Below, piece by piece: positions 1,806 to 58,123 of a DNA stretch of 64,000 nt. This stretch comes from Aquamicrobium sp. (GTDB lineage: Bacteria; Pseudomonadota; Alphaproteobacteria; Rhizobiales; Rhizobiaceae). The notes below the pieces were generated by a model. That model was given only the letters and a program-made list of their open reading frames with translations, was not told the DNA's origin and did no database searches. Numbering within the stretch: the stretch's first letter is position 1; every line of letters begins with the position of its first letter. Location of the stretch: contig JAHHDT010000003.1 of the NCBI GenBank assembly GCA_019739225.1, positions 248,001 to 312,000 of the forward strand. The letters are read 5' to 3'. Position numbers and translations under genes: made by a program.

Positions 1806-2118
1806 CTGGACCTCCGTTGATCGGCGGAGGTTCGCGCACCATAGGCAAGCCGTATTGAATGATCGCGCCACAATGGTGGAAGGCAGCTTCGGGGCCGAGA
1901 TCTGACTGTCTACTATTGAGGACTTCGGACGTAAAGCGGACATATCGCTGATGACTGACCGAGGCCGTCACTGACTCATAGGGGAAGTCCGGGCGGTCCG
2001 CTTCACGGCACGCCGATTTCCCCAGCCGCCTGTTCTATCAGCGTCGTTTCGACACTACCGCTGGCTGCACTGATGGTCTAGTTTCCTGTTGGGGAATAAA
2101 ATATCGGGGGCTCGCCGC
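1806..2118. other. Divergent intergenic region
   Basis: About 310 bases between the leftward molybdenum hydroxylase operon and the rightward Gabija-like pair. It must hold promoters for both, but I see no convincing consensus boxes, no strong palindrome and no small gene. It is probably also the left junction of the defence pair. Confidence 0.4.
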
Positions 2119-9973: not shown

Positions 9974-10474
9974 ATGGCGTCCGCAGGTCACTCTGCGAAC
10001 GGCAGAGCAACCCACACTGATCCGGCCTTGTCGTTGTCCCAGGCATGGATCCAGGCTCATGCCGCGATGGCAGAACACTGCCTGAGGCAACAGCGGCTTG
10101 AGACCCAGCTGCTGGAGTGCGGACAGTCCTCCCAAAACGTCGACGGAAAGCCTGCCAGAAGGGCAGGGGGCCGCGGCGGCATAAAGCAGGCCTATGCAAA
10201 AGCAAAAGCGGCCGAGGCCTTGGCAGTCGCGCGCGAACAGGAGCTGCTGGAGCGCCTCCCCACGACCCCCGCGCACTCCCTAGCCGGCATCGCCGCCAAA
10301 CTCACCGTCATTCTGACCGAGCTCGAGGACAATACGGATTTGACGGATTTTCCGGCGCCGCACCTGCGCTCCGCCCTGGAGGATCTACTGCGTCTGATGG
10401 GGCAAGCAAACGTCGATGCATCTCCGGTTTCGGACAGCGAACAGGAGATCGCAGACGACCTTTATCACGCGTGA
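9974..10474 (+). CDS. Hypothetical protein, probable 3' part of an amber-interrupted gene
   Basis: 166 codons starting at ATG 9974. The same frame is open for 19 codons upstream from ATG 9914 (GGAG site seven bases before it) and is interrupted only by a TAG at 9971-9973. The true gene is therefore probably 9914-10474, now broken. ATG 9974 itself has no good ribosome site. The protein is rich in Ala, Gln and Leu, with helical segments at about 20-50 (A-W-I-Q-A-H-A-A-M-A-E-H) and 70-100, and no membrane span. I do not recognise a function. It lies 29 bases before the ABC transporter operon and may be co-transcribed. Confidence 0.5.
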   Translation: MASAGHSANGRATHTDPALSLSQAWIQAHAAMAEHCLRQQRLETQLLECGQSSQNVDGKPARRAGGRGGIKQAYAKAKAAEALAVAREQELLERLPTTPAHSLAGIAAKLTVILTELEDNTDLTDFPAPHLRSALEDLLRLMGQANVDASPVSDSEQEIADDLYHA

Positions 10475-10503
10475 CATCAAGCAATTCAAAGGGAGAGGTG
10501 GAA

Positions 10504-11370
10504 ATGGCACCACAGGCATTGAGGAGGATAGGGCTGTTGGGGATCGCCGCGGCGCTGGTTCTAAGCTGGAACGGGAACGCGTCGGCCGAAACGACCAAGG
10601 AACGGATCCTGCGCGAAGGCAGGATCGTTGTCGGCATCCACAACCGCTCGCCTTGGGGCTTCCGCGACGACAAAACGGGCGAGCCCACCGGCTGGCACCC
10701 CGATATCCTCAAAGCCGCCTTTGCCGAACTGGGTGTCACAAACCTGGAGTTTCAGGTGACCGAGTTCGGCGCCCTCATTCCGGGCCTGCTGGCGGGCCGT
10801 TTCGACGCTGTGGCATCGGGCCTCGCGATTACGCCCGATCGTTGCAAGCAGGTCGCGTTCGGCGCACCGGACCTGCAGGCTCCTGACGCGGCTATCGTGC
10901 TCGCGGGCAATCCGAAGGACATCCATGGCTATGCCGACATCGCCGACGATGAAACCATCATCATGGGCGCCGGGCGCGGCAGCGTGGTGACCACCAATGC
11001 CAAGGCGGCCGGCGTGCCTGAGACCCGCATGCTGCTGTTTCCAGATATCGAATCCAACCTCTCTGCGCTGCGCGCCGGACGTATAGACACAGCACTCATG
11101 GCCTCGCCGACGGTTATCGGGCTTCTGGCCGGCAACGCGCACGGCCTCGAACGAGCCCTGCCATTCGATGTTGGTCAAGCAAGTACAAATTTCGCGGCGA
11201 TCGCCTTCCGTAAGGAAGATGTCGACCTGCGCGCCCTCTACGACGAACAGCTGGCCAAGCTGAAAGGCACCGAGGCCTTTGCTGCGATCATGGGCAAATA
11301 CGGCTTCGGCGATGCGGAAGCGGTGCCGCCGGGCATCACCGCCACCGACCTTTGCAACAGACAGCCGTGA
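10504..11370 (+). CDS. ehuB: Ectoine/polar amino acid ABC transporter, substrate-binding protein (EhuB-like)
   Basis: 288-residue periplasmic solute-binding protein (SBP family 3) with a signal peptide ending N-A-S-A near residue 24. The core matches EhuB as I know it: I-V-V-G-I-H-N-R-S-P-W-G-F-R-D, V-T-E-F-G-A-L-I-P-G-L, A-S-G-L-A-I-T-P-D-R-C, G-A-G-R-G-S, and a C-terminal I-M-G-K-Y-G-F. EhuB delivers ectoine and hydroxyectoine to the EhuCD permeases. The ATG at 10504 follows GGGAGAGG. It heads a tight operon with two permeases, an ATPase and a deacylase. Ectoine as substrate is likely but unproven, because the usual eut/doe catabolic set is absent nearby apart from a DoeB-like gene. Confidence 0.8.
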   Translation: MAPQALRRIGLLGIAAALVLSWNGNASAETTKERILREGRIVVGIHNRSPWGFRDDKTGEPTGWHPDILKAAFAELGVTNLEFQVTEFGALIPGLLAGRFDAVASGLAITPDRCKQVAFGAPDLQAPDAAIVLAGNPKDIHGYADIADDETIIMGAGRGSVVTTNAKAAGVPETRMLLFPDIESNLSALRAGRIDTALMASPTVIGLLAGNAHGLERALPFDVGQASTNFAAIAFRKEDVDLRALYDEQLAKLKGTEAFAAIMGKYGFGDAEAVPPGITATDLCNRQP

Positions 11371-11377
11371 GACGCAG

Positions 11378-12037
11378 ATGACGCTGATCGATATCTGGCT
11401 GGGCATTTTGCAGGGGCTCGGTACAACGGCCGCCGTCACCGCCTATGGTCTGGTCTTTGCCATTCCCTTTGCGCTCGTATTCGGCGTCGCCCAATACCTC
11501 ACCGGGGGCGTCGCGCGGCTGCTGGTCACCGGCGTCATCGAATTCTGGCGCAGCTCCGCTGTCATCATCCTGCTGTTCGTTTTCTACTACGCGCTGCCCG
11601 TCGTCGGGATCACCCTATCGGCCATGACGGTGAGCGCCATGGTGCTGGGCCTCAATGCAGGAGGTTATGCCAGCCAGGCGGTGCGCGCCGGTCTTCAGGC
11701 GCTTCCGTCCGGCCAGAGGGAGGCTGGTGCAGCGCTCGGCCTGTCACGCCCGGCAATCCTGCTCCTGATCGAACTGCCGCAGGCGCTGATCACGATGAGC
11801 CCGACCTTCGTCAACACAGTCATCCAGCTGGTGAAGGCGACGGCGCTGGTGTCGCTCGTGACTTTGACCGACATGACGTTCCGCGCCAAGGAAATCGCGC
11901 AGGTCGAATACAACCCCGTCGCGATCTACACAGCACTCCTCCTCGCATTCTTCGTCGTCTGCTATCCGATCGCGCTCGCAGGACGCTGGCTGGAGAGGCG
12001 TGTCGCAGCACCCGGGAGCCGCGCCAATGGGATTTGA
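11378..12037 (+). CDS. ehuC: Polar amino acid ABC transporter permease (EhuC-like)
   Basis: 219-residue inner-membrane permease of the HisM/GlnP family with about five hydrophobic segments. Typical motifs are present: F-W-R-S-S-A-V-I-I-L-L-F (family F-x-R-x-x-P), G-G-Y-A-S-Q-A-V-R-A-G, and the EAA loop around A-G-A-A-L-G-L-S-R-P. It starts seven bases after ehuB ends and overlaps the next permease gene by 11 bases. It would form the heterodimeric channel with the following gene product. Confidence 0.82.
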   Translation: MTLIDIWLGILQGLGTTAAVTAYGLVFAIPFALVFGVAQYLTGGVARLLVTGVIEFWRSSAVIILLFVFYYALPVVGITLSAMTVSAMVLGLNAGGYASQAVRAGLQALPSGQREAGAALGLSRPAILLLIELPQALITMSPTFVNTVIQLVKATALVSLVTLTDMTFRAKEIAQVEYNPVAIYTALLLAFFVVCYPIALAGRWLERRVAAPGSRANGI

Positions 12038-12686
12038 TCTGGCCTTCGCATTGTCCAGCGTACCGACAATCCTCGGCGCGGTGGGCACGACCCTGTTCGT
12101 TGCGCTCGTCAGCTGCATTGGTGCAGCCGCAACCGGGTTTCTCTTCGAGATGGTGCGCCGCGTCGGTGGCATCGCCGGCCTCCTGATCGGTTTCGTGATC
12201 GATTTCATCAGGTCGACGCCGGTATTGGCGTGGCTCTATTTTCTTTACTTCGTCCTCCCCTTCTACGGCATTCGCCTCGGCTCCATGACAGTCGGCGTCA
12301 TGGGTCTCAGCCTCTATTACAGCGGCTATCTGGCCGAAGTCTTCAAGGCGGGGATCGATGCGATCCCGAGGGGCCAGTCGGAGGCAGCCCGCGCGCTGTC
12401 GCTTAGCCGGCGCGATGCGGTCATCCATGTCATCGCGCCGCAGATGTTGAGAAACATCGCCGCTCCGCTCGGCAACTACTTCGTCTCGATCCTCAAAGCG
12501 ACGCCTTACCTGGCGGTGCTCGCGGTTCCGGAAATGCTGGGCCAGGCCTTCGATATCGCCTCTGAGACATATCGGTATACCGAGCCGCTGGTCGTCGCAG
12601 GCATCATCTTCCTGGTGCTGGCGCTCGCCATTTCCCACGGCGTCAAACGTCTGGAACAGCGGCTCCTCGCGGTGGGCGCACGATGA
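12027..12686 (+). CDS. ehuD: Polar amino acid ABC transporter permease (EhuD-like)
   Basis: 219-residue second permease of the transporter, same family as its upstream neighbour. F-I-R-S-T-P-V-L-A-W-L-Y, Y-S-G-Y-L-A-E-V-F-K-A-G-I and A-A-R-A-L-S-L-S-R-R-D (EAA loop) are visible, with five or so membrane segments. I chose ATG 12027, which overlaps the end of ehuC by 11 bases; an earlier in-frame ATG at 12000 would give a nine-residue extension lying entirely inside ehuC. Confidence 0.82.
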   Translation: MGFDLAFALSSVPTILGAVGTTLFVALVSCIGAAATGFLFEMVRRVGGIAGLLIGFVIDFIRSTPVLAWLYFLYFVLPFYGIRLGSMTVGVMGLSLYYSGYLAEVFKAGIDAIPRGQSEAARALSLSRRDAVIHVIAPQMLRNIAAPLGNYFVSILKATPYLAVLAVPEMLGQAFDIASETYRYTEPLVVAGIIFLVLALAISHGVKRLEQRLLAVGAR

Positions 12687-12745
12687 CCATGACGCCGCCG
12701 ATGGAATGCTGGTCGACGAAGATCCACGAGAAATCAGGAGAGGGC

Positions 12746-13495
12746 ATGAGCATACAATCGGATACCATCGTCGACATCCAGGGTCTCAACAAATGGTTCG
12801 GCGCCTTGCACGTGCTGAAAAATGTCGACCTGGCAGTTGCAAGCGGTACGCGTGTCGTGGTGTGCGGGCCGTCGGGTTCAGGCAAATCGACCCTCATCCG
12901 CTGCATCAACGGGCTGGAAACCTATCAGCAAGGCACGTTGCGTCTTGCAGGGACGATGCTCGGCCTCAGTGCCAGGGAGACGGCCGCAGCGCGCCGCCAG
13001 ACTGGGATGGTGTTTCAGAGCTTCAACCTGTTTCCGCATCTGACGGTGCTCTCCAATTGCACGCTGGCGCTGCGACGCGTCGCCGGCCGGAGCCGCGCGG
13101 AAGCGGAAGACATCGCCATGGCCCATCTGGAAAAGGTCAGAATACCTGAGAAGGCGCAGTCCTATCCCGGCCAGCTCTCCGGCGGACAACAGCAGCGCGT
13201 GGCGATTGCACGGGCACTGTGTCTCAACCCTCGCATCATGCTCTTTGACGAACCGACATCGGCGCTCGATCCGGAGATGATCAAGGAGGTCCTCGACGTC
13301 ATGGTCACGCTGGCCCGCGACGGCATGACGATGGTCTGCGTCACCCATGAGATGGGCTTTGCGCGAGAAGTCGCTGGCCAGGTCGTCTTTATGGACGGGG
13401 GATGCATCCTCGACAGCGCATCCTCCCGCGACTTCTTCGGCTCGGCGGGACATCCCCGCTCGCGGCTTTTTCTCGAAAAGATCCTGAAGCACTGA
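12746..13495 (+). CDS. ehuA: Polar amino acid ABC transporter ATPase (EhuA-like)
   Basis: 249-residue ATP-binding subunit. Walker A is G-P-S-G-S-G-K-S-T, Q-loop V-F-Q-S-F-N-L-F-P-H, signature L-S-G-G-Q-Q-Q-R, Walker B I-M-L-F-D-E-P-T-S-A-L-D-P, and H-loop V-T-H-E-M. All ATPase residues are intact. I start at ATG 12746 because AGGAG precedes it. An alternative in-frame ATG at 12683 overlaps the stop of ehuD (ATGA) and would add 21 residues unlike other members of the family. It energises the EhuCD channel. Confidence 0.83.
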   Translation: MSIQSDTIVDIQGLNKWFGALHVLKNVDLAVASGTRVVVCGPSGSGKSTLIRCINGLETYQQGTLRLAGTMLGLSARETAAARRQTGMVFQSFNLFPHLTVLSNCTLALRRVAGRSRAEAEDIAMAHLEKVRIPEKAQSYPGQLSGGQQQRVAIARALCLNPRIMLFDEPTSALDPEMIKEVLDVMVTLARDGMTMVCVTHEMGFAREVAGQVVFMDGGCILDSASSRDFFGSAGHPRSRLFLEKILKH

Positions 13496-13505
13496 GAGGA
13501 CGTCA

Positions 13506-14519
13506 ATGACAGGTTCGACGCAGGTTTGGACGCCGCTCGATTTCGAGGCGGATGGGAAGCGATGCGACTGGCTGCGCGTGCCCCATTCAACGGATTTATC
13601 GGGTTACGGCGTGGTGCCAATCCCGATTGTGTGCATCCGAAACGGTGCGGGGCCCACGGCTCTTCTTGTCGGTGGCAACCATGGCGATGAATATGAGGGG
13701 CAGGTTGCGCTTGCGCGCCTGTGTCGCGAGATCGAAGCAGCGGATGTTCGCGGTCGGATCATCATTCTGCCTTCGCTGAACACGCCCGCCGTCGCGGCGG
13801 GTCGGCGCGTCTCACCTCTGGACGAAGGCAATCTCAACAGATCGTTTCCGGGCGATCCGGTTGGCGGGCCGACGGCGATGATCGCGCATTATGTCACCAC
13901 GGTGCTTCTCGCCATGGCCGATGTCGCAATCGACCTTCATGCCGGTGGCCGCTCGTGCCACTACCTTCCGTGCGCCTTGATCAGAAGTGGTGGCGGGGCA
14001 GACGAAAATCGTGAGCTTACCGACCTTGCGACCGCATTTGCTGCCCCGATTACCTCCATCAGCGATGGCTCAGGGGGAGGCGGCATGACAACATTTTCGG
14101 CAGCAGGCCAGGGCTTTGGTGTGCCGGTGCTCACCGCCGAACTTGGGGGTGGGGCCACCCTGTCGCGGGCAGGACTTGCCATTGCAGAGCAAGGGTTGCG
14201 GCGTGTCCTGCAGCTTTATGGAATTTTGCAAGGCGAGGATTCCAGCCCTGCGCCGCCCACCCGCTTCATGCGCGTGCGGGGCAGGGGCGCCTTCGTCTAT
14301 GCGATGCGCAAGGGCCTGTTCGAGCCGGCGGCGCGTATGGGGGAGGTCGTGCAAGCTGGCCAGCCTGCCGGAGTCATTCACACCATCCATCGGCCCTGGG
14401 AAGCGCCGGAGCCGGTCGCATTCACTGAAGGTGGCATGGTTGCCTGCCGGCGCGCGCCGATACTGACCCAGCCAGGCGACTGCCTCTACAAGCTTCTCGT
14501 CGACGTCGATCCGGGCTGA
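13506..14519 (+). CDS. DoeB-like succinylglutamate desuccinylase/aspartoacylase-family deacylase
   Basis: 337-residue zinc hydrolase of the AstE/AspA family. The zinc ligands are visible: G-G-N-H-G-D-E-Y-E-G (His and Glu, about residues 57-62) and I-D-L-H-A-G-G (third His, near 142). DoeB removes the acetyl group from N2-acetyl-2,4-diaminobutyrate in ectoine breakdown, and the match plus the Ehu-type transporter support an N-acyl diamino acid substrate. It follows ehuA by 10 bases with GAGAGGA before the ATG, so it belongs to the transporter operon. Its 3' end overlaps the convergent GNAT gene by 34 bases. The rest of the doe/eut pathway is not here. Confidence 0.75.
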   Translation: MTGSTQVWTPLDFEADGKRCDWLRVPHSTDLSGYGVVPIPIVCIRNGAGPTALLVGGNHGDEYEGQVALARLCREIEAADVRGRIIILPSLNTPAVAAGRRVSPLDEGNLNRSFPGDPVGGPTAMIAHYVTTVLLAMADVAIDLHAGGRSCHYLPCALIRSGGGADENRELTDLATAFAAPITSISDGSGGGGMTTFSAAGQGFGVPVLTAELGGGATLSRAGLAIAEQGLRRVLQLYGILQGEDSSPAPPTRFMRVRGRGAFVYAMRKGLFEPAARMGEVVQAGQPAGVIHTIHRPWEAPEPVAFTEGGMVACRRAPILTQPGDCLYKLLVDVDPG

Positions 14520-15010
14520 TCGCCACAAACGCGCTCGATGGGGGCGATCATGAGCCTTTGTGGACCGATGCGTCCATCGAAAATCCGCCCCGTGGGCGTC
14601 AGTCCGCAGGCAAGGTTCAAATGGAAAGCGGCGAGATTGGCGACGTTCACGCTCGACATCACATGTGTGACATCCGGCCGTTCCCGTGAGATCCATTGCG
14701 CGGCGAGGCGGATCGCAGCCTTGCCGTAGCCGCGCCCTTGCAGGCGTGCGTCGATCCGCAGATTGTTCAGCGTCATGCAGCCGGCCTCGGCCCAGACGGG
14801 CAGGGCTGCTTTTTCCCGGGCAACAATGAAGCCCACCACCCTGTCGCCATCGGCGAGTGCAAGAGGGGTCTGGCGCGGCGGTGAGGCTCGCAGCTGCTTG
14901 AAGATGTCGCCAATTGGCCCACCGGCATAAGCCGTCTTGTCGGGGTCGACGGCGATGTCGGCAACAACAGCCTCATCGTCGAGACCAAGCACACGCAACG
15001 TGATTGTCAT
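14486..15010 (-). CDS. GNAT-family N-acetyltransferase
   Basis: 174-residue acyltransferase with the GNAT acetyl-CoA loop L-Q-G-R-G-Y-G-K-A-A-I near residues 105-115. It is preceded by the usual beta-4 strand (M-T-L-N-N-L-R-I-D) and followed by V-N-V-A-N-L-A-A-F-H-L-N-L-A-C-G-L. The start at 15010 has GGGAG upstream; a longer frame lacks a site. It is convergent with the deacylase gene and overlaps its end by 34 bases. Acetylation of an amino compound handled by the transporter and deacylase is plausible (protection or prodrug cycle), but the substrate is unknown. Confidence 0.75.
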   Translation of the reverse strand: MTITLRVLGLDDEAVVADIAVDPDKTAYAGGPIGDIFKQLRASPPRQTPLALADGDRVVGFIVAREKAALPVWAEAGCMTLNNLRIDARLQGRGYGKAAIRLAAQWISRERPDVTHVMSSVNVANLAAFHLNLACGLTPTGRIFDGRIGPQRLMIAPIERVCGDQPGSTSTRSL

Positions 15011-15206
15011 CTCTCCCACTCCAGACGTTCGGACTGACAATCAGCGTGGCATCCAGTCATGCAGACCAGCCTCACGGAATCCGGGGATTGACCGACTATG
15101 GCGCCGACCGGGTGTTGAGGCATCCCGACGGCGCGGATGAGATCGCGGCCGGCTGCTCAGGCAGCGATTCTAATGAACGACCTTCGGGCGGCACCGTCGG
15201 GAACCG

Positions 15207-15830
15207 TCATGCTGGCGATGGCAAATCGATCACCACCGGCGGGTCGATGCGGTAGGCGCGGCGAGTGCTCCCGATTGCATCCGGCGTGACATCGATCAAC
15301 AGCGCGATGATGTCTCCGTCCTCGTGCTGCATGACATCTCCCAGCTCAGCAATGCTCCATCCAAGGGCACGCAGACGCTTTGGCCAGAACGATTCACAGA
15401 CGACACTGATCTGGCGAATGCCGAGTTTCAGGGCGACCTCGAGTAGGCCGCAGAGAACAACGCCGGCGACCGGCGACGGGGAGCCGCGGCTGCGCAGGGC
15501 GGGATCGATGAAGAAGCGCGTCCATTCATAGATATCCGACGCCCGCGGTGGCCCCGCGACTGCGAGTTGCGGAAACACATCGCCCAGGAGGTGAGGCTGT
15601 AAGGTCGGGACGAGACGCGAGCCGCCGACGATCTTGCCGGCGCTATCGAGCGCCATCAGGTAAATGGCATGCTCGGTGTCGAACGCATCCATTTCGATGT
15701 TGATGGGTCGTGCCACGGACCGCCATTGTCGTCGCTTCACATATATGTCGTAGCGGATGCGAAAATAGCGCTCCAGCAAGACCCTGTACTGTTTCCTGCT
15801 GGCCCAAGTGACCACCTGAATACGAACCAT
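15207..15830 (-). CDS. luxI: LuxI-family acyl-homoserine-lactone synthase
   Basis: 207-residue autoinducer synthase making an acyl-homoserine lactone from S-adenosylmethionine and an acyl carrier. Conserved LuxI positions are present: R-Y-D-I-Y-V near residue 25, W at R-R-Q-W, E-M-D-A-F-D, G-G-S-R-L-V-P-T, D-V-F-P-Q-L, and the E-W-T-R-F catalytic stretch near 103. Start ATG 15830 is set by GGAGG five bases upstream; a TTG at 15845 would place that site inside the gene. The GGAGG lies in the 3' arm of a perfect hairpin, so translation may be controlled. It is 71 bases downstream of luxR on the same strand. Acyl chain type cannot be read from sequence alone. Confidence 0.88.
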   Translation of the reverse strand: MVRIQVVTWASRKQYRVLLERYFRIRYDIYVKRRQWRSVARPINIEMDAFDTEHAIYLMALDSAGKIVGGSRLVPTLQPHLLGDVFPQLAVAGPPRASDIYEWTRFFIDPALRSRGSPSPVAGVVLCGLLEVALKLGIRQISVVCESFWPKRLRALGWSIAELGDVMQHEDGDIIALLIDVTPDAIGSTRRAYRIDPPVVIDLPSPA

Positions 15831-15831
15831 G

Positions 15832-15855
15832 ACGCCTCCAGCCAAATGGAGGCGT
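15832..15855 (-). promoter_or_regulatory. Hairpin sequestering the luxI ribosome-binding site
   Basis: On the transcribed (minus) strand ACGCCTCCA, a 6-base loop TTTGGC, and TGGAGGCGT form a perfect 9-bp stem. The stem ends one base before the luxI ATG. The Shine-Dalgarno GGAGG is fully paired with CCTCC. As DNA the same element is a 24-base dyad and could instead, or in addition, bind LuxR. No sign of a coding role. Confidence 0.65.
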
Positions 15856-15901
15856 GGTAGGCGAATGCGTTCGGAAAAAGCATCCCGGAATTTCGGTATA
15901 G

Positions 15902-16630
15902 CTAGATCTGAATTTCATGCCTTCGCAGTGCTTTCACGATGGCATGGGCCACGTTGATGGCGTTCAGCTTCTCGCGGATGTTGCGATGGTGGCTCTCCAC
16001 CGTATTCGTCGTTACGCCTAGGATGCAGGAAATATCGTCGGCCGATTTACCGTCTGCGCTCCATTCCAGGAGTTCGCGTTCCCTCGGCGTCAGGGGCTTA
16101 CCCTCCTCCGCGCCCGATTTGCTTTCCAGGCGGCTTATTTTGCGGAAGAGGTGAACACACAGCGCTTCTATCAGTGGCATCGCGCCGGGCGGTATCTCCA
16201 TCCGATCGCTTGCTGCCGTCACCACAGCCGGTCCAGACAGCGGCATATGGATTGGCACACATAAGCCGTCCTTCATGCCAAATTCGGCGGCCTCGTCCAT
16301 CACCAGACTGGCACGTGTTGTCAGACGACCAGCGCGCAGTTCATGCCAGAGGAACGGTTCGGCAGCGAGACGGCTGCGTGCGGCGCAAGGATCGTAAAGG
16401 AAATGCCCCTCGGATTCGTAGCGGGCGAACCATTCGCTCGCCCATCCGTCATGAAGGATCTCACGATGCCATTCGCTGTCCTGGGGGACCGGCAATCCCG
16501 TGATCAGAAAACTGTTCAGGCCGTACCGATTGAGGACGCCCTGAAAAACTTCGAGTGCGCGATCAGATGAGGGGGAATCGTCGATCGCTGATATCGCAGC
16601 GAAAAGCTCCCCAACGGCAGCGTTGTTCAT
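15902..16630 (-). CDS. luxR: LuxR-family quorum-sensing transcription regulator
   Basis: 242-residue regulator with an N-terminal autoinducer-binding domain and a C-terminal GerE-type HTH. In the ligand domain W-F-A-R-Y...Y-D-P-C, F-L-W-H-E-L and G-M-K-D-G-L-C-V-P-I-H match the conserved Trp, Tyr, Asp, Pro and Gly positions of TraR/LuxR. The HTH reads L-T-P-R-E-R-E-L-L-E-W-S-A-D-G-K-S-A-D-D-I, then T-V-E-S-H-H-R-N-I-R-E-K-L. GAGG precedes ATG 16630. It lies upstream of luxI in the same orientation. Three direct repeats upstream of its start are candidate control sites. Targets may include the neighbouring enzymes or the virB operon about 7 kb away. Confidence 0.9.
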   Translation of the reverse strand: MNNAAVGELFAAISAIDDSPSSDRALEVFQGVLNRYGLNSFLITGLPVPQDSEWHREILHDGWASEWFARYESEGHFLYDPCAARSRLAAEPFLWHELRAGRLTTRASLVMDEAAEFGMKDGLCVPIHMPLSGPAVVTAASDRMEIPPGAMPLIEALCVHLFRKISRLESKSGAEEGKPLTPRERELLEWSADGKSADDISCILGVTTNTVESHHRNIREKLNAINVAHAIVKALRRHEIQI

Positions 16631-16654
16631 CGATAAACCTCGATACGCCCCGCA

Positions 16655-16712
16655 GCTTCAACCTGAACACCCCACGGCTTCAACCTAAGCGTGTTCCGCA
16701 ACCGGCTTCAAC
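16655..16712 (-). repeat. Three GCTTCAAC direct repeats upstream of luxR
   Basis: GCTTCAACCT at 16655-16664 and 16677-16686, and GCTTCAAC at 16705-16712 (GTTGAAGC on the luxR strand). Start-to-start distances are 22 and 28 bases. They lie 25-82 bases upstream of the luxR start, where a regulator could bind or where the leader RNA could be targeted. Confidence 0.5.
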
Positions 16713-16797
16713 GCCGTCGACGTCGATTGTCTACTGTAGGAGTCAAGGAAGGCACTATTTTCTTGGTTGGCACGCCGCAGGTTGCAAACGCGGAGCT

Positions 16798-17064
16798 TCA
16801 GTCCTGTGAGCCACGCGCTGGCTGCTTGGTTGAGCGTCCAGTGTGACGCTTCGGTGCTGTTGCAGTGATGAGGTCCTTCGGCTGAACGTCCAGCGCCTTC
16901 GCCAGGGCTACCAGCGTATCCAGCGTAGCGTTTTGCCGGCCGGCCTCCACGTTGCTGATATAGGCCCGCGTGCGCCCCGCGACGAAAGAGAGCTGCTCCT
17001 GAGACAGCCCTTTCCCCCGGCGGAGCCGTTGCACGTTCAGACCCAACACAGCGCGCAGATTCAT
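16798..17064 (-). CDS. XRE-family regulator (C-protein-like)
   Basis: 88-residue HTH protein: N-V-Q-R-L-R-R-G-K-G-L-S-Q-E-Q-L-S-F-V-A-G followed by R-A-Y-I-S-N-V-E-A-G-R-Q-N, then L-D-T-L-V-A-L-A-K-A-L-D-V. This is the single-domain type that includes controller (C) proteins of restriction-modification loci, though no such locus is adjacent. I start at ATG 17064; longer frames reach 17250 but would cover the operator repeats at 17087-17112. It is divergent from the threonine-synthase-like gene and probably controls that promoter as well as its own. The C-terminus is basic (P-K-R-H-T-G-R-S-T-K). Confidence 0.8.
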   Translation of the reverse strand: MNLRAVLGLNVQRLRRGKGLSQEQLSFVAGRTRAYISNVEAGRQNATLDTLVALAKALDVQPKDLITATAPKRHTGRSTKQPARGSQD

Positions 17065-17086
17065 CCTGCAAGCAGTGCGCCGATGC

Positions 17087-17112
17087 ACACTATGGTACGA
17101 CACACTATAGTG
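17087..17112. promoter_or_regulatory. Candidate operator between XRE regulator and PLP enzyme gene
   Basis: ACACTATGGT (17087-17096) and ACACTATAGT (17102-17111) are direct repeats starting 15 bases apart. The second contains the perfect 10-base palindrome CACTATAGTG (17103-17112). The arrangement, 22-50 bases upstream of the regulator start and 80-100 upstream of the divergent gene, resembles operators of small XRE or C proteins. Confidence 0.55.
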
Positions 17113-17190
17113 AACATTCCGCATTGACAGCGGCATCACCGCCTGTTTGAACCGGGGCGTGGATGAACGATCCTGCACGGAGGAATTGCA

Positions 17191-18600
17191 GTGGCTAGTC
17201 AACCCCTTAGCACGCTTCGCGCAGGCCTCTCGGAACCGAATTCCGCACACCCTCGGAAGGCAAAAATCAGTGGGACCGGTATGGCCATGGCGCCGGGGGG
17301 AGGCACCGTCGTCGGGCTCACCTGCATTCGCTGCGGCACACCCTATCCGGCGACTGTCGAGATCGATTCAAGGGGCTGTCCGGCCTGCCACGAAACCGCG
17401 CCGGCCAATCTCAGACCCGTCTATACCTCACCCGCGGATCCGCTATCGATCGCGGCGAATGCACCGCGATCGTTGTGGCGCTATGCCCATGCTCTGCCTT
17501 GCTCGGCGGAAGACGCCGTTTCGCTCGGGGAAGGGCAGACGCCCTTGGTTGAAGTGAGCCGGATCGGCCGGTTGTTGGGAGTTGCAAACCTCTTCATCAA
17601 AGACGAGGGCCGTAACCCGACCTGGTCGCACAAGGACCGGTTCTCAACGGTTGCAGTGTCGGTGGCCAGGGCGCAGGGGGCAAAGGTCGTGGCGACGGCT
17701 TCTTCCGGCAACGCCGGCGCCTCGCTCGCTGCTTACGCGGCCCGCGCGGGTCTGCGTTGTGTTGTCGCCACCTTTGGCGGCTCCGCTGAAGCGATGCTGG
17801 CGCAGATCAGGAAGTACGGCGCAACGGTTCTGCCGCTCGCCAACAAGATGGATCGATGGGCCTTGCTTGCCCAAGCAGCGGAACGCCATGGCTGGTTCGT
17901 GGCTTCGCCCTATCAAGCGCCTGTCGTTGGCAGCCACGCCCTGGGCATCGAGGGCTACAAGACCATCGCTTATGAAATCGTCGAGCAGTCGGGCGGCATT
18001 GCCCCCGACTGGTGTGTGCTCCCCGTCTGTTACGGAGACGCATTGTCGGGTGTTTGGTCGGGATTCGAGGAATTGTTTGCGCAGGGCGCGATCCCGCGGC
18101 TGCCCCGAATGGTGGCTGCCGAGGTGCATGGCTCTCTGGCCCAGGCGCTTGCCACAGGCAGTGACAGGCTTGAAGAGCGTGGGATGGAATTCGAAAGCCG
18201 CGCCATTTCGATCGGTGCCCCGCGCAGCACCTACCAGGCTCTGAAGGCGCTGCGCGACTCCTCCGGGAGCGCGGTTCCGGTGAACAATGACGGGCTGGTC
18301 GAGATGCAGGAGCGCCTGGCACGCATAGAGGGCATATTCGCTGAACTGGCGTCGGTCACGCCCCTGCTAGCGATCGCAAAATTGCGCAGGGAACGCGTGA
18401 TCGCCGATGACGACCGCGTTGTGGCAATCGTCACCGCCAGCGGCCTGAAGGATCTCGATCAATCGGTCACGAGCCCCGCGCACAAGGCGATTTTTCAATC
18501 GACCGACGAGGCTTGGGAATGGCTCCGTGACAAGGATGCGGGACTGCTTGAGACCCCGACAATCCCTGCCGCCAGTCGCGCAGAAACCTTTAATGCGTAG
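17191..18600 (+). CDS. Threonine-synthase-like PLP-dependent enzyme
   Basis: 469-residue fold-type II PLP enzyme. An N-terminal zinc-ribbon-like segment has C-I-R-C and C-P-A-C at about residues 45-66. The PLP lysine lies in N-P-T-W-S-H-K-D-R (threonine synthases have N-P-T-G-S-F-K-D-R), and A-S-S-G-N-A-G-A-S-L-A is the cofactor phosphate-side loop. GTG 17191 follows a GGAGGA site. Housekeeping threonine synthase acts on O-phosphohomoserine; here the gene sits apart from thr genes, next to a GHMP kinase and a second PLP enzyme, so a specialised beta/gamma-replacement or elimination on a phospho-amino acid is more likely. It converges with the next gene, overlapping by 11 bases. Confidence 0.75.
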   Translation: MASQPLSTLRAGLSEPNSAHPRKAKISGTGMAMAPGGGTVVGLTCIRCGTPYPATVEIDSRGCPACHETAPANLRPVYTSPADPLSIAANAPRSLWRYAHALPCSAEDAVSLGEGQTPLVEVSRIGRLLGVANLFIKDEGRNPTWSHKDRFSTVAVSVARAQGAKVVATASSGNAGASLAAYAARAGLRCVVATFGGSAEAMLAQIRKYGATVLPLANKMDRWALLAQAAERHGWFVASPYQAPVVGSHALGIEGYKTIAYEIVEQSGGIAPDWCVLPVCYGDALSGVWSGFEELFAQGAIPRLPRMVAAEVHGSLAQALATGSDRLEERGMEFESRAISIGAPRSTYQALKALRDSSGSAVPVNNDGLVEMQERLARIEGIFAELASVTPLLAIAKLRRERVIADDDRVVAIVTASGLKDLDQSVTSPAHKAIFQSTDEAWEWLRDKDAGLLETPTIPAASRAETFNA

Positions 18601-19627
18601 AGTGCGCTTGGCGCACCTGATCGAGGCTGCGTCTTGCCCAGGCAAATCGCGTCCACTCCGTCTCCGACGCGTGCTCGACGGTCGTCAGCATTCGGGGTTT
18701 GGAAGGCGTGGCACCCGGCCATCCAGGAAGCGAGGCAAGCCAGGCGTCGTCAAAAACGGTATCGGCGTAGCGGTGACCCTCGTCCGGCATGATGACTGCG
18801 ACGCGGGCGCCGGGACGACTGTCGGCGATCCACCTGGCGACGAGTGCGGCGGCAGCACTGGTCGGACCCTGGAAAATGCCATGTTCGCGTAACAAGTCGC
18901 GAGCGCCCTTGAATGCCGGGTATGCCCCAACCCAGTGCACTTCATCGACAAGTTCGTGGTCTAGATTGGCGGGCAATAAACTGTTGCCGAGACCCCGCAA
19001 CAGCCGGCGGCCGACAGGTTGCCCGAACAGGATGCTGTGGTGCGTGTCGACCGCGATGATCGACATCTGCGGAAAGATCATGCGCAGAAATGCTCCCGTC
19101 CCGCACAGCGAGCCGCCGCTTCCGACGCAGCCTACAAGGCAGTCGATCCTGCCCATCGATCGCACCAGCGTTTCGGCCAGAGCTGCATAGGACAGCGCGT
19201 TTTGGGGATTGTCATATTGCCTTGGCCAGAAGCAATGCGGTTCCTCGCTCCGAATGCGCTGCAGTTCCTGCAGACGCCGCACCTGATCGCCATTGCCGTC
19301 GGGATCTTCAGTGACGATAATCCTCGCACCGATCCCTTCCAGGCGCGCGCGATACTTTGCGTCGATGAGGCTCGAAGCGGTGACGAGCGTGAGCCGGTAT
19401 CCGCGCGCAGCCGCCAGCAGCGCGAGAGCCATACCGAATGTACCGGATGTCGACTCGACGATGCGGTGTCCGGGCCGAAGTGCGCCCTCCGCCGCGGCAC
19501 GGTCCAGGATGTATCTGGCCGGCATGAGCTTCATCAAAGGAAACACGGCTGCGACCAGATTGGCAGACAACACCGCTATGCGCGGGGTCTCGAGCTCACG
19601 GAAGTAGTCGGCGTCCAAAGCTACCAT
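18590..19627 (-). CDS. Cysteine-synthase-like PLP-dependent enzyme with altered motifs
   Basis: 345-residue fold-type II PLP enzyme of the CysK/CBS/SbnA group. The region of the PLP lysine reads F-P-L-M-K-L-M-P-A-R-Y where CysK has S-x-K-D-R, and the substrate loop is S-T-S-G-T-F-G instead of T-S-G-N-T-G. V-G-S-G-G-S-L-C-G-T-G corresponds to the phosphate-binding Gly/Thr loop. The fold is retained but the chemistry is probably not O-acetylserine sulfhydrylation. It overlaps the GHMP kinase gene upstream by 7 bases (ATG inside the kinase's last codons), implying coupled expression. SbnA, which uses O-phosphoserine supplied by a dedicated kinase, is a useful functional analogy, not an assignment. 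Confidence 0.72.
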   Translation of the reverse strand: MVALDADYFRELETPRIAVLSANLVAAVFPLMKLMPARYILDRAAAEGALRPGHRIVESTSGTFGMALALLAAARGYRLTLVTASSLIDAKYRARLEGIGARIIVTEDPDGNGDQVRRLQELQRIRSEEPHCFWPRQYDNPQNALSYAALAETLVRSMGRIDCLVGCVGSGGSLCGTGAFLRMIFPQMSIIAVDTHHSILFGQPVGRRLLRGLGNSLLPANLDHELVDEVHWVGAYPAFKGARDLLREHGIFQGPTSAAAALVARWIADSRPGARVAVIMPDEGHRYADTVFDDAWLASLPGWPGATPSKPRMLTTVEHASETEWTRFAWARRSLDQVRQAHSTH

Positions 19628-20559
19628 CTCGCGCCGTCGTCATTTATCTGGTGAAACGCGACCTCGCGAAAACCCAGCCGCTTTGCCAATCCCGCGACCC
19701 GACCAGCGCGCCGCCGCAGGTTCTTTCCGGTGCGGTCGAAAATAATGCCGATCAACGAGCCGCTATGGGCCACTTGTACGCCGCAGGCGCCGGCGTCTTC
19801 GGCAATAGCGAGGACCTGGTCGAATTGCTCCTTGGGCAGATGCCGCTGACTGATCCGGGCGCTGGCGGTTGCCGCACGGCCAAGGCAAGTGGCATCCTGA
19901 TAACGTACGGCATGGGCGATCAGCCCCCGCAGGACACGGAACTGCTGGATTTCCGCTTGATCATAGCGTGGCGGAGGCAGATTGAGCGTATCTATCGGCA
20001 GTCCGTCACGGGTCTTGAACCCGACCAATAACAGGGGCGGCAACGCGCCGCCGAAATGCTCCAGAACGACGCCCTGTCGCTGCGCGAAGAGCAACGCCTG
20101 CTCACCGAAGGCGATGGCATCGCTGGCTTTTTCTGCGGCGACCGCCAACTGGCTGATACGCGAAGGCTGAAGGTGCGAAGAGTAGGCATCCGCCACCGCT
20201 CGAATAACGGCAACGACATCGGCGGTGGAGGAACCATAGCCGTGACCGATGGGGATGTCGCTGACGATGTCGACCGCCCCGCCTTCGGCGATAGCCAGAT
20301 GATCGAGAGTGAGCCGCGCTGCCACACCGGCCTTTGCCCTGCCATGCGGGCGCACAGTGATGTCGGTTGACCGGGTGGCGATGAATGTTGCCCGCGACGT
20401 CATCGCTGGGAGAGGCAAGGTAACCAGTCCGCGAAGAAGCCGTCCATTCCCGACTTCGAACACGCCTTGCAGAAGCTCTCCGTGATGGGCCATCGCAGTG
20501 CCGACGCCCTCTAGAGATAACGGCTCATTGTTCCGCGACAAGCTGGCGACTGCAAGCAC
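19621..20559 (-). CDS. GHMP-family kinase (threonine/homoserine-kinase-like)
   Basis: 312-residue small-molecule kinase. The N-terminal H-H-G-E-L-L-Q-G resembles the G-E-L-I-Q-G of PduX-type L-threonine kinases. The GHMP motif is P-I-G-H-G-Y-G-S-S-T-A-D near residue 105, followed by a helix. The C-terminal G-A-C-G-V-Q-V-A-H-S-G-S-L-I-G-I segment matches the third GHMP motif. GTG 20559 has GGGAG six bases upstream. It probably phosphorylates the side-chain hydroxyl of an amino acid (threonine, homoserine or serine), giving a substrate for the overlapping cysteine-synthase-like or the nearby threonine-synthase-like enzyme. No cobalamin or pdu genes are nearby. Confidence 0.72.
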   Translation of the reverse strand: MLAVASLSRNNEPLSLEGVGTAMAHHGELLQGVFEVGNGRLLRGLVTLPLPAMTSRATFIATRSTDITVRPHGRAKAGVAARLTLDHLAIAEGGAVDIVSDIPIGHGYGSSTADVVAVIRAVADAYSSHLQPSRISQLAVAAEKASDAIAFGEQALLFAQRQGVVLEHFGGALPPLLLVGFKTRDGLPIDTLNLPPPRYDQAEIQQFRVLRGLIAHAVRYQDATCLGRAATASARISQRHLPKEQFDQVLAIAEDAGACGVQVAHSGSLIGIIFDRTGKNLRRRAGRVAGLAKRLGFREVAFHQINDDGARW

Positions 20560-20703
20560 GATACGCTCCCGGTGTTGCGCGTCCGAGATGATCGTGGCGT
20601 CGACGGCGACTGGGTGGCGTCACGGAATTCCGGCATAGACCAGGTTTTGATCACGCGGTTCACTGGCCCGACGGATGCAGCGAAGCCGAAATGGCGCAAT
20701 ACT

Positions 20704-21727: not shown

Positions 21728-22426
21728 CTAACGGTCGGTTCTTCGGGGATGCCTTCGCGCATCCTCAAATGGCGGAGAGATTTCGAGACCGCGCTCGGCA
21801 AGCAGATTGAAATCGGCGATCGGTTGGCGAGACAGCGTCCGGTCGGCGGCCTTTGCGCGCCACTCGTCCATGTCGAGCACGTAGGTTGCCCACATGCCGT
21901 ACCGCGCCGACATGGCGTGCTTCTGCCATGCCAGATAGTGCGCGGGCGCCTGTGAGGTCGCTCGGGCCCAGCCGACCCGCACCATCTCCAATGAGAGGTC
22001 GCGGCCGTTCGCGATGCAGCGGCCGCGAGGGACGCCATCGCCATCGTTGCCTTGCACGACGCAGCTCACGCGAGCATGACCAACCGACCGCTTCAACCAC
22101 GCCTTAGCCAACGGACCGCAAGGCACCGGCTTAAGGATCGCATTCTCGCCGTGCCGGCGCGCATCGTAGGACCATTGCGGAAGTTCACACGTGTCGATCG
22201 AGGCCAGTCGCACCTCTTGGCCGTTCTGTGGAAACCACAGAGTGTGCCCATCGACAACTGTTGCGCGGCCAGAGATTTCGGTCACCTGGTCGAGGTCGGG
22301 GACTGAACCGATCCCGACCGATGGCTCGCGACTGCCATGCAACATATCGGCCGCATGCGCAGCACCGGTGAAGGCGATCACCAGCAGCGCGACCATGCCC
22401 GAGCTCACGCCGACGGCTCGCGTCAT
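21728..22426 (-). CDS. Secreted thermonuclease-family (SNase-like) protein
   Basis: 232-residue exported protein with a signal peptide (cleavage near A-A-H-A-A-D, residue 26) and one SNase domain. The nuclease arginine and glutamate are retained with the right spacing (R-L-A-S-I-D-T-C-E), and a second arginine lies in P-R-G-R-C-I. The calcium-site motif D-G-D-T is D-G-H-T here, so activity may be altered. It overlaps the upstream gene by ATGA. Its position beside the virB operon suggests a role in the periplasm during conjugation, or regulation of incoming or outgoing DNA; that is inference. Confidence 0.75.
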   Translation of the reverse strand: MTRAVGVSSGMVALLVIAFTGAAHAADMLHGSREPSVGIGSVPDLDQVTEISGRATVVDGHTLWFPQNGQEVRLASIDTCELPQWSYDARRHGENAILKPVPCGPLAKAWLKRSVGHARVSCVVQGNDGDGVPRGRCIANGRDLSLEMVRVGWARATSQAPAHYLAWQKHAMSARYGMWATYVLDMDEWRAKAADRTLSRQPIADFNLLAERGLEISPPFEDARRHPRRTDR

Positions 22427-24933: not shown

Positions 24934-25233
24934 ATGACCAAGTTCGCCGACGAGAAACCTCAACTGACGCCGCTGGTTATCGGCTTGACCCGGCCGCCCA
25001 TGATGTGGGGCGTCCCGCTGAACGCCTTCTACATCATCGTCGGTTTCACGCTGATCGCCTTCCTGGTGAGCTCGAGCTTCTGGTCGGCACTGATCGCACC
25101 GCTGATTTACCTCGCGCTGTTTGCGCTTTGTACGAGCGACATGCGCGTCCTCGACATTGCCCAGGTGGTCGGTCGTCGAACGCCGCGAACGCGGAACCGG
25201 CTGTTCTGGCGCACAAATTCTTTTGGACCTTGA
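24934..25233 (+). CDS. virB3: VirB3 inner-membrane component
   Basis: 99-residue protein with the VirB3 hallmark L-T-R-P-P-M-M-W-G-V-P close to the N-terminus and two adjoining hydrophobic helices. It begins two bases after virB2 ends and is followed two bases later by virB4, with which VirB3 forms a complex (in some systems a fusion). Confidence 0.87.
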   Translation: MTKFADEKPQLTPLVIGLTRPPMMWGVPLNAFYIIVGFTLIAFLVSSSFWSALIAPLIYLALFALCTSDMRVLDIAQVVGRRTPRTRNRLFWRTNSFGP

Positions 25234-25235
25234 TC

Positions 25236-58036: not shown

Positions 58037-58123
58037 CGGTGGATTCTCCCGTGATGCGGGCGCACGAAGCCGCGCCGCCGGGCGAGTCGGCAACGTCGGG
58101 CAGGTGCGGAGTTGGAAGTGCGG

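What the first reader, a model, noticed from the sequence alone, without database searches (positions are those of the whole stretch)
14486..20559. Quorum-sensing genes beside an unassigned phospho-amino-acid pathway
Within 6 kb there are a GNAT acetyltransferase, luxI, luxR, an XRE regulator, a threonine-synthase-like enzyme, a cysteine-synthase-like enzyme and a GHMP kinase that overlaps the latter. GHMP kinases can phosphorylate threonine or homoserine; both PLP families include members that use phospho-amino acids. None is next to housekeeping thr, cys or cobalamin genes. The simplest reading is kinase, then one or two PLP enzymes, then acetylation, giving a non-protein amino acid or signal made under quorum control. 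I do not know a described cluster with this set.
Basis: partly seen in the sequence, partly recalled or inferred. Interest (0 to 1): 0.75.

Follow-up and report, generated by a model that had tools for sequence, protein, structure and literature searches.

The report
Quorum-controlled phospho-amino-acid pathway on plasmids
A set of genes carried on mobile plasmids of soil and root bacteria appears to use cell-density signalling to switch on a small pathway that phosphorylates an amino acid, swaps the phosphate for another group and acetylates the product, next to genes that seem to take the product back up and break it down; what the compound is remains unknown.

Summary
GNAT, luxI, luxR, XRE, a ThrC-like and an SbnA/CysK-like PLP enzyme and an overlapping GHMP kinase sit at 14486-20559, beside an Ehu-like ABC transporter and a DoeB-like deacylase, on a conjugative element. 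The set recurs in the same order on Aminobacter, Bosea and Mesorhizobium plasmids. In a genome scan made with the kinase alone, a CysK-like gene follows it in 41 of 41 alpha-proteobacterial loci; 30 have ThrC-like, 24 luxI. The enzymes compared are not housekeeping.

New here: an 18-bp lux-box-like palindrome precedes luxI, the kinase and (weakly) GNAT, but not ThrC-like, DoeB-like or transporter genes. A sister lineage has a diverged box shared by luxI and kinase promoters. The CysK-like enzyme keeps two of three SbnA residues that read phosphoserine; the ThrC-like enzyme lacks threonine synthase's (recalled) phosphate-binding residues.

Best reading: quorum-induced synthesis (kinase, PLP beta-replacement, acetylation) of a small amino-acid product, perhaps a diamino acid, with a separate uptake-and-breakdown arm (transporter, deacylase, ThrC-like). 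Substrate, product and role are inferred; no paper seen describes the cluster.

The parts
10117..11370 (+). solute-binding protein of an amino-acid ABC transporter (the ORF is longer than the gene; the SBP_bac_3 domain begins near residue 170)
   Evidence: PF00497; best solved match 2q88, E 9e-37, recalled as EhuB of the ectoine transporter
11279..12686 (+). two ABC permeases (11279-12037, 12000-12686)
   Evidence: EhuC model 162.8 bits, cut-off 196.95, for the first; the second by homology to permeases of L009
12683..13495 (+). ABC ATPase
   Evidence: GlnQ 278.7 bits, EhuA 257.1 bits, both below their cut-offs
13506..14519 (+). DoeB-like N-acyl amino-acid deacylase
   Evidence: PF24827; DoeB model 255 bits, cut-off 403; best solved match 3cdx (E 2e-64), next the N-acetyl-diaminobutyrate deacetylase 6twl (E 2e-61)
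14486..15040 (-). GNAT acetyltransferase
   Evidence: PF00583; homologous GNATs in clusters without quorum genes; model pLDDT 91, small-molecule GNAT fold
15071..15088 (.). weak lux-box-like site before GNAT
   Evidence: 10.7 bits against a null 99% of 10.2; 9 of 11 loci above the null, this one included
15207..15845 (-). luxI, AHL synthase
   Evidence: PF00765, 73 bits
15882..15899 (.). lux-box-like palindrome 45 bp before the luxI start
   Evidence: 24.4 bits, best site of the 64 kb window
15902..16630 (-). luxR, AHL receptor
   Evidence: PF03472 and PF00196
16798..17064 (-). XRE regulator (the ORF as listed runs to 17250; start taken from relatives)
   Evidence: PF01381; 267-bp CDS in L010 and L012
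17191..18600 (+). ThrC-like PLP enzyme with an N-terminal Cys pair (start may be 17281)
   Evidence: PF00291; Arg and Asn-loop positions of ThrS replaced
18590..19627 (-). SbnA/CysK-like PLP beta-replacing enzyme
   Evidence: SbnA model 215.8 bits, cut-off 350; 5d87 SbnA, E 6e-40; K33, R118, Y138
19621..20559 (-). GHMP kinase
   Evidence: PF00288 and PF08544; model pLDDT 92, best Foldseek match a homoserine kinase
20619..20636 (.). lux-box-like site 68 bp before the kinase start
   Evidence: 19.8 bits, second-best site of the window

Best explanation
A quorum-controlled metabolite cluster on a conjugative element, with a making arm and a separate using arm. LuxI makes an AHL; LuxR with AHL binds an 18-bp palindrome before luxI, the kinase-CysK operon and (weaker) GNAT. 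The GHMP kinase phosphorylates a hydroxy-amino acid (Thr the first guess, Ser next). The SbnA/CysK-like enzyme eliminates the phosphate on PLP and adds a nucleophile at the beta carbon (an amine is the first guess), giving a beta-substituted or 2,3-diamino acid. GNAT N-acetylates it. A second arm without lux boxes (Ehu-like ABC transporter, DoeB-like deacylase, ThrC-like PLP enzyme) brings the acetylated compound back in, deacetylates it and breaks it by beta-elimination. Shown by sequence: gene set, order, conservation, box positions, retained and lost active-site residues. Inferred: LuxR binding, every substrate, the nucleophile, the direction of the second arm and the biological role.
For: Linkage: of 41 alpha loci of the kinase scan, CysK-like in 41, ThrC-like in 30, luxI in 24, the 24 all with ThrC-like. 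Boxes, tested on 17 loci: best site above the shuffled 99% before luxI in 14/16 (8 of the 10 loci that gave no seed), kinase 7/17, GNAT 9/11, against 0/97 for eight control gene types. In the M24 lineage the box core differs, yet luxI and kinase promoters share it in 7/10 loci (13-15 of 18 matches); 47 control promoters reach at most 12. SbnA Arg132 and Tyr152 equivalents each in 93 of 94 CysK-like rows; E. coli CysK and CysM have Ala and Phe. Passages of PMC12414870 call Arg132, Tyr152 and Ser185 key to binding O-phosphoserine and say that SbnI phosphorylates serine in the same pathway. Of the 36 loci outside the proteobacteria, 15 have an argininosuccinate-lyase-like and 9 an NRPS gene near the kinase. 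GNAT and DoeB-like co-occur (13 of 21 against 2 of 24) and GNAT and M24 exclude each other (0 of 21 against 14 of 24) (not corrected for kinship). Solved matches of the deacylase include N-acetyl-diaminobutyrate deacetylase.
Against: No substrate is tested. SbnA's third residue, Ser185, is Gly in 94 of 94 rows, as in CysK. 10 of 17 kinase promoters stay below the shuffled 99%, one at -1.0; in a wider scan at 13 bits (39 loci) the quorum loci L013, L016, L050, L054 and L153 have no site at all. luxI occurs without a ThrC-like gene in the stretches read of three plasmids (L015, L023, L024). An AceE-like gene lies directly before the kinase in the same direction in L012, L015, L040 and L047, which would also suit a catabolic operon. 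No exporter was recognised in the window cluster. DoeB, EhuC and SbnA models score under their cut-offs. Quorum loci L012, L034, L036, L038 and L060 show neither GNAT nor DoeB-like. The 17 box-test loci are related and were chosen by me out of a 27-row kinase clade.
Confidence: 0.5

Rival explanations
1. Catabolic operon: an imported hydroxy- or beta-substituted amino acid is phosphorylated and then eliminated by the CysK-like enzyme to a 2-oxo acid that the AceE-like enzyme decarboxylates; quorum control tunes scavenging.
For: Amino-acid importers in many loci; AceE-like gene directly before the kinase in L012, L015, L040 and L047, with a divergent Lrp gene in the first three.
Against: Lux boxes sit before kinase and GNAT, not before the importer (0 of 9 SBP, 0 of 10 ATPase); relatives place the pair with MFS, NRPS and lyase genes; uptake with ThrC-like and AceE-like genes occurs without the pair in the 15 kb read of L159.
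Confidence: 0.2
2. Antimetabolite with self-protection: the pair makes a toxic amino acid, GNAT masks it, and the ThrC-like enzyme is a resistant or destroying enzyme.
For: Quorum control and acetylation suit an inhibitor; structural neighbours of GNAT include drug and phosphinothricin acetyltransferases.
Against: The ThrC-like enzyme has lost residues of threonine synthase, so it is unlikely to be a spare threonine synthase; an importer and a deacylase for a toxin would be odd.
Confidence: 0.13
3. The quorum genes serve plasmid conjugation and the metabolic genes are passengers.
For: VirB-type T4SS beside the cluster here and in L010 and L148; AHL control of transfer is known on Mesorhizobium elements (passages of PMC8627217).
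Against: No good box before T4SS genes in the window; the third site, 13.3 bits at 26790, lies inside virB4. Boxes lie before kinase and GNAT. T4SS genes were recognised within 10.5 kb of the kinase in few of the 41 alpha loci (virB4 3, trbE 1, trbG 2; flanks were at most 10 kb).
Confidence: 0.12

Closest known systems
SbnI-SbnA-SbnB route to 2,3-diaminopropionate (staphyloferrin B)
   Same: A free amino-acid kinase feeds a PLP beta-replacing enzyme (passages of PMC12414870); Arg132 and Tyr152 equivalents kept
   Different: SbnA model below cut-off, Ser185 is Gly; no SbnB-like gene was noticed (not searched for); the kinase here is GHMP (SbnI's family was not compared)
2,3-diaminobutyrate (DABA) genes of friulimicin- and mureidomycin-type clusters
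   Same: Kinase and CysK-like genes are homologous to pairs next to argininosuccinate-lyase-like genes and NRPS in actinobacteria; passages say that a friulimicin-type cluster with dabA-C includes cysteine-synthesis and argininosuccinate-cleavage functions (PMC11117518) and that DABA comes from threonine and ammonia (PMC10714638)
   Different: No lyase, ATP-grasp or NRPS gene recognised here; quorum genes, transporter, deacylase and ThrC-like enzyme instead. Those named clusters were not compared directly; that they hold a threonine kinase is recalled
Ectoine uptake and breakdown (EhuABCD, DoeA, DoeB)
   Same: Transporter, deacylase and, in sister clusters, M24 hydrolase match the Ehu, DoeB and DoeA models or structures
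   Different: All under curated cut-offs; no ectC-like gene was noticed (not searched for); linked to kinase and SbnA-like genes
TraI/TraR quorum control of rhizobial elements
   Same: LuxI and LuxR on a conjugative element; both match the TraI/TraR models
   Different: 69.2 and 64.7 bits against cut-offs of 292 and 250; boxes precede metabolic genes, not T4SS genes

Membership tests
SbnA (TIGR03945) | score over the curated cut-off | tested here: not met
   215.8 against 349.95 bits
SbnA (TIGR03945) | Arg132 and Tyr152 that bind O-phosphoserine | tested here: met
   R118 and Y138; Arg and Tyr each in 93 of 94 CysK-like rows
SbnA (TIGR03945) | Ser185 | tested here: not met
   Gly in 94 of 94
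SbnA (TIGR03945) | beta-replacement on a phospho-amino acid | not testable with these tools
   needs an assay
Threonine synthase (TIGR00260 / PRK08197) | score over cut-off | tested here: not met
   149.7 against 167.1; 212 against 303 bits
Threonine synthase (TIGR00260 / PRK08197) | Arg before the [LI]EG motif and GNAGN loop (role in phosphate binding recalled) | tested here: not met
   Gly or Ala for the Arg in 54 of 54 rows; CYGDA or another sequence for the loop
Homoserine kinase (TIGR00191) | score over cut-off | tested here: not met
   32.4 against 168.25 bits; own genome has a TIGR00938 homoserine kinase at 384 bits elsewhere
LuxI (PF00765) | score over cut-off | tested here: met
   73 against 24 bits
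LuxR with AHL-binding domain (PF03472, PF00196) | both domains | tested here: met
DoeB (TIGR02994) | score over cut-off | tested here: not met
   255.2 against 402.7 bits
LuxR regulon | palindromic box before target promoters | tested here: met
   luxI 14/16, kinase 7/17, GNAT 9/11, controls 0/97;
LuxR regulon | binding of LuxR-AHL to the box | not testable with these tools
   needs an assay

The most novel reading that the evidence does not exclude
A conjugative plasmid carries its own quorum-switched economy around a private amino-acid derivative: an N-acetylated 2,3-diamino acid (or its five-membered cyclic amidine, a ring-contracted relative of ectoine) made by kinase, SbnA-like enzyme and GNAT at high density, and re-imported, deacetylated and consumed by paralogues of the ectoine-use genes encoded beside it, much as opines tie metabolism to plasmid carriage. 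In the M24 lineage the same core makes a different derivative, cleaved by an M24 hydrolase.
Probability: 0.22. Interest if true: 0.82.

Novelty: new variant of a known kind. Interest (0 to 1): 0.62.

Why it matters
AHL circuits on rhizobial plasmids are often read as switches for conjugation. Here a circuit found on plasmids and chromosomes of Hyphomicrobiales and other alpha-proteobacteria seems wired to a metabolic pathway. The predicted targets (kinase, GNAT), the predicted site and a short list of candidate substrates make it directly testable, and it would show what a plasmid gains from density-dependent small-molecule production.

Tried and rejected
Housekeeping reading: rejected. The best other CysK-like match in the own genome is 33% identical, its homoserine kinase is the TIGR00938 type, and no housekeeping row falls inside the cluster clades. 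Only the kinase tree was built with the careful method; CysK and ThrC trees are FastTree trees with three and two outside rows (E. coli, own genome). SbnA, PduX and other threonine kinases were not in any tree. The outside row ownL117 looks like a threonine dehydratase, not the genome's threonine synthase, which the search did not show as such. The own-genome CysK row was a wrong-frame translation and is not counted; the right one is.

Substrate from fold: the kinase model matches homoserine, mevalonate and IspE kinases about equally, and GNAT matches many small-molecule acetyltransferases; neither names a substrate. The second-look aligner was not available.

AceE-like gene as an MdeB-type 2-oxobutyrate enzyme, which would point to a C4 skeleton: recalled only. 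In 'mdeb' occurs in none of the ten papers listed (of 47). Not used as evidence.

No title or abstract start seen describes this cluster. Eight papers were seen as passages only. PMC13133039 sorts plasmid quorum loci of Rhizobium into 32 genomic contexts; 'threonine synthase', 'cysteine synthase' and 'kinase' do not occur in its main text, but its figures and supplements were not seen and could hold a related context. PMC10470506 says M. japonicum MAFF 303099 has four luxI and four luxR homologues and studies the first pair (passages); whether the pMLb pair of L012 is among the others was not checked. The library lacks most subscription journals.

Own-genome box search: the pattern was written from the two window sites, so their zero mismatches are by construction. 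Four other places have one mismatch; up to two mismatches gave 13 forward and 17 reverse matches against 9 and 5 for the reversed pattern.

Box tests: one search used a matrix with one GNAT seed (L040) and scanned 39 loci; one search dropped that seed and used 17 loci, 15 rows of one kinase clade plus L040 and L060, leaving out ten rows of the 27-row clade. The nulls are simple shuffles. In one search, L045 also reached 13 matches before the kinase, but at another palindrome 166 bp from luxI, so it is not among the 7 of 10; L048 and L156 reached 11.

Correction of my notebook: it says 13 of 17 kinase promoters have their best site at -61 to -68. The count is 12 of 17, one of them (L037) scoring -1.0; four others (L030, L035, L036, L038) fall inside a longer ORF call, and L040 at 8.

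Counts that lean on my sorting: the 41 alpha, 3 beta and 36 other loci were grouped by record title; L035 and L039 are from one MAG. In 'other', 34 of 36 have a called kinase ORF and 30 a CysK-like gene. The scan kept 80 of 128 relatives. For one search, 51 loci with ThrC-like, or with CysK-like and MFS hits, were taken (a few are beta or actinobacterial), twelve short loci having been dropped beforehand; six with under 8 kb downstream (L007, L035, L042, L049, L053, L087) were dropped before the tests. Many of the 111 plasmid records hold only a distant kinase; L028 has no CysK-like gene beside it.

Full report
WHAT IS THERE. The window lies on contig C3 (548,507 bases) of a 5.35 Mb genome. 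Genome G004 of the same genus has a contig of the same length as that of Mesorhizobium sediminum KCTC 42205, and is taken to be it. The seven genes named in the finding are present. To their left on the plus strand are an amino-acid ABC transporter (10117-13495) and a DoeB-like deacylase (13506-14519). To their right are a nuclease-like ORF (21728-22426, homologous to a gene annotated thermonuclease in L010), small genes and a VirB-type secretion system: virB4 25005-27650 (by homology to L010), TrbL/VirB6, CagX/VirB9, TrbI/VirB10, a T2SSE-family ATPase and a coupling protein (34453-36438), then a relaxase (36678-39101). The cluster therefore rides on a conjugative element.

CONSERVATION. A plasmid search with the kinase finds 111 records, many with only a distant kinase. 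The whole block including transporter and deacylase is on Aminobacter sp. MSH1 pUSP2 and a Bosea vaviloviae plasmid; kinase, CysK-like, ThrC-like, XRE, luxR and luxI are on M. japonicum pMLb and, with GNAT, on two further Aminobacter plasmids. A nucleotide search finds similarity to the block in 28 records, all at 60-80% identity, 3 of them over at least 80% of the query. A genome-contig scan with a three-sequence kinase alignment gave 80 loci (of 128 relatives). Sorted by title into 41 alpha, 3 beta and 36 other, a CysK-like gene lies within 10.5 kb of the kinase in 41, 3 and 30; ThrC-like in 30, 1 and 0; luxI in 24, 0 and 0; argininosuccinate-lyase-like in 0, 0 and 15. In the 41 alpha loci the CysK-like gene is the next recognised gene after the kinase, and none has luxI without ThrC-like. 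Three plasmid loci outside that scan do have luxI without ThrC-like in the stretch read: L015, L023 and L024. The kinase is patchy: 4 of 60 genomes of the own and related groups match, the own one included. In 297 genomes of the family, 20 (own included) have a ThrC-like match at E 1e-60 or better. Of 20 such places read, 15 have at least 60% identity, and 14 of these carry the kinase or the CysK-like gene; the exception, L155, is a 6.1 kb contig. One further place of that kind (G280:C626) was not fetched. The five below 60% show neither; two of them, L159 and L160, hold ThrC-like with DoeB-like, M24 and transporter genes.

TWO VERSIONS. Loci come in a version with GNAT, DoeB-like and Ehu-like transporter (as here) and one with an M24 peptidase-family gene and often a TTT transporter. 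Among 45 loci with at least 8 kb downstream, GNAT and DoeB-like go together (13 of 21 against 2 of 24; p 3e-4) and GNAT and M24 never do (0 of 21 against 14 of 24; p 1e-5); DoeB-like and M24 share one locus. These p-values ignore kinship. GNATs of quorum and non-quorum clusters are homologous.

NOT HOUSEKEEPING. In the kinase tree of 103 rows E. coli ThrB sits on a very long branch. A clade of 27 rows (100/99) holds nearly all window-type loci, with Bosea, Mesorhizobium and Rhizobiaceae rows mixed, as expected for mobile genes; L050, a quorum locus, falls outside it, and L058, without ThrC-like or luxI, inside. The CysK-like and ThrC-like rows exclude the few housekeeping rows compared. The own genome's homoserine kinase is of another family.

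ACTIVE SITES. The best solved relative of the CysK-like protein is SbnA. SbnA's Lys47, Arg132 and Tyr152 align to K33, R118 and Y138 (where the Tyr is Phe in the mutant chain shown); Lys is found in 94, Arg in 93 and Tyr in 93 of 94 cluster rows, against Ala and Phe at the last two in E. coli CysK and CysM; SbnA's Ser185 is Gly in all 94. Passages of PMC12414870 name Arg132, Tyr152 and Ser185 as key residues for selective O-phosphoserine binding. So a phospho-amino acid is a likely substrate and the kinase its likely source. In the ThrC-like protein the Arg before the [LI]EG motif of four solved threonine synthases is Gly or Ala in 54 of 54 rows (some of them the same gene), and the GNAGN loop is CYGDA or another sequence. 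That these residues bind phosphate is recalled. It follows that the ThrC-like enzyme probably does not use O-phosphohomoserine.

QUORUM REGULON. Three palindrome words found before luxI in six relatives gave a matrix; the window gave no seed. Tested on 17 loci, the best site is above the shuffled 99% before luxI in 14 of 16, before the kinase in 7 of 17 and before GNAT in 9 of 11; before CysK-like, luxR, XRE, ThrC-like, DoeB-like, ATPase, SBP and AceE-like genes in 0 of 97. Of the luxI sites, six loci supplied seeds; 8 of the other 10 pass. The two best sites of the 64 kb window are those before luxI (24.4 bits) and the kinase (19.8 bits); the third, 13.3 bits, is inside virB4. In 12 of 17 kinase promoters the best site lies 61 to 68 bp before the start (one with a score of -1.0). 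In a wider scan of 39 loci at 13 bits, quorum loci L013, L016, L050, L054 and L153 show no site, so this box is not universal. In the M24 lineage the box core differs (mostly near CAGATCT in place of GGAATTCC), but in 7 of 10 loci the kinase promoter carries a site like the one before luxI (13 to 15 of 18 matches), while 47 control promoters reach at most 12. Boxes that change together in the two promoters are what one regulator acting on both would leave. Binding itself is inferred.

HOW IT PROBABLY WORKS. At high density LuxR with AHL raises luxI, the kinase-CysK operon and GNAT. Kinase makes a phospho-amino acid, the SbnA-like enzyme swaps phosphate for a nucleophile, GNAT acetylates. Actinobacterial relatives of the pair stand with argininosuccinate-lyase-like genes and NRPS, much like the dab genes of a friulimicin-type cluster as described in passages; this makes a threonine-derived beta-amino product the first guess here. 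Without the lyase the product may be the adduct itself or come from another nucleophile. The DoeB-like enzyme, the transporter and the ThrC-like enzyme lie outside the box-bearing set and are read as the using arm; solved matches of the first two include N-acetyl-diaminobutyrate deacetylase and, by recall, the ectoine-binding protein EhuB.

LIMITS. No enzyme activity, metabolite or transcript was measured. Kinase and GNAT folds do not name substrates. The AceE-like gene directly before the kinase in L012, L015, L040 and L047 keeps a catabolic reading alive. Related rows are not independent. Paper searches cover open-licence papers only.

Noticed in passing
window 2089-6089: AAA_15 ATPase with an OLD-like TOPRIM domain followed by an overlapping UvrD-type helicase; looks like a Gabija-type anti-phage pair (name recalled).
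   Followed up: no
window 61884-63134: HipA-like protein with N- and C-terminal HipA domains, a toxin-antitoxin-type gene.
   Followed up: no
window 43086-44021: ArdC-type anti-restriction protein on the conjugative element.
   Followed up: no
window 52934-58093: 1719-aa ORF with an SNF2-related domain.
   Followed up: no
L007 13489-17244 and L033: In the M. sediminum copy the kinase, ThrC-like and XRE genes (and elsewhere in L007 a transglycosylase gene) each match in two pieces; sequencing error or decay cannot be told.
   Followed up: partly
L025, L089, L092, L095-L097, L099, L100, L102, L103: Actinobacterial group (chiefly Streptomyces): kinase with a divergent CysK-like gene and an ATPase hit before it; L025 is annotated with an iron ABC transporter and DUF364, suggesting a metal-binding product.
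   Followed up: no
L159 (G255): M24, DoeB-like, ABC transporter, ThrC-like, Lrp and AceE-like genes with no kinase or CysK-like gene in 15 kb: a using-only locus.
   Followed up: partly
L023 (Sulfuriferula nivalis plasmid): Beta-proteobacterial plasmid with kinase, CysK-like, ATP-grasp, argininosuccinate-lyase-like, PhzF, DoeB-like and an AHL synthase within 11 kb: a lyase-type cluster that also has a quorum gene but no ThrC-like gene in the stretch read.
   Followed up: no
L015 (Paracoccus saliphilus plasmid): Lrp, AceE-like, kinase, luxR and luxI beside trb genes; the CysK-like match after the kinase scores only 158 bits and is not in the annotation table, so it may be a remnant.
   Followed up: no
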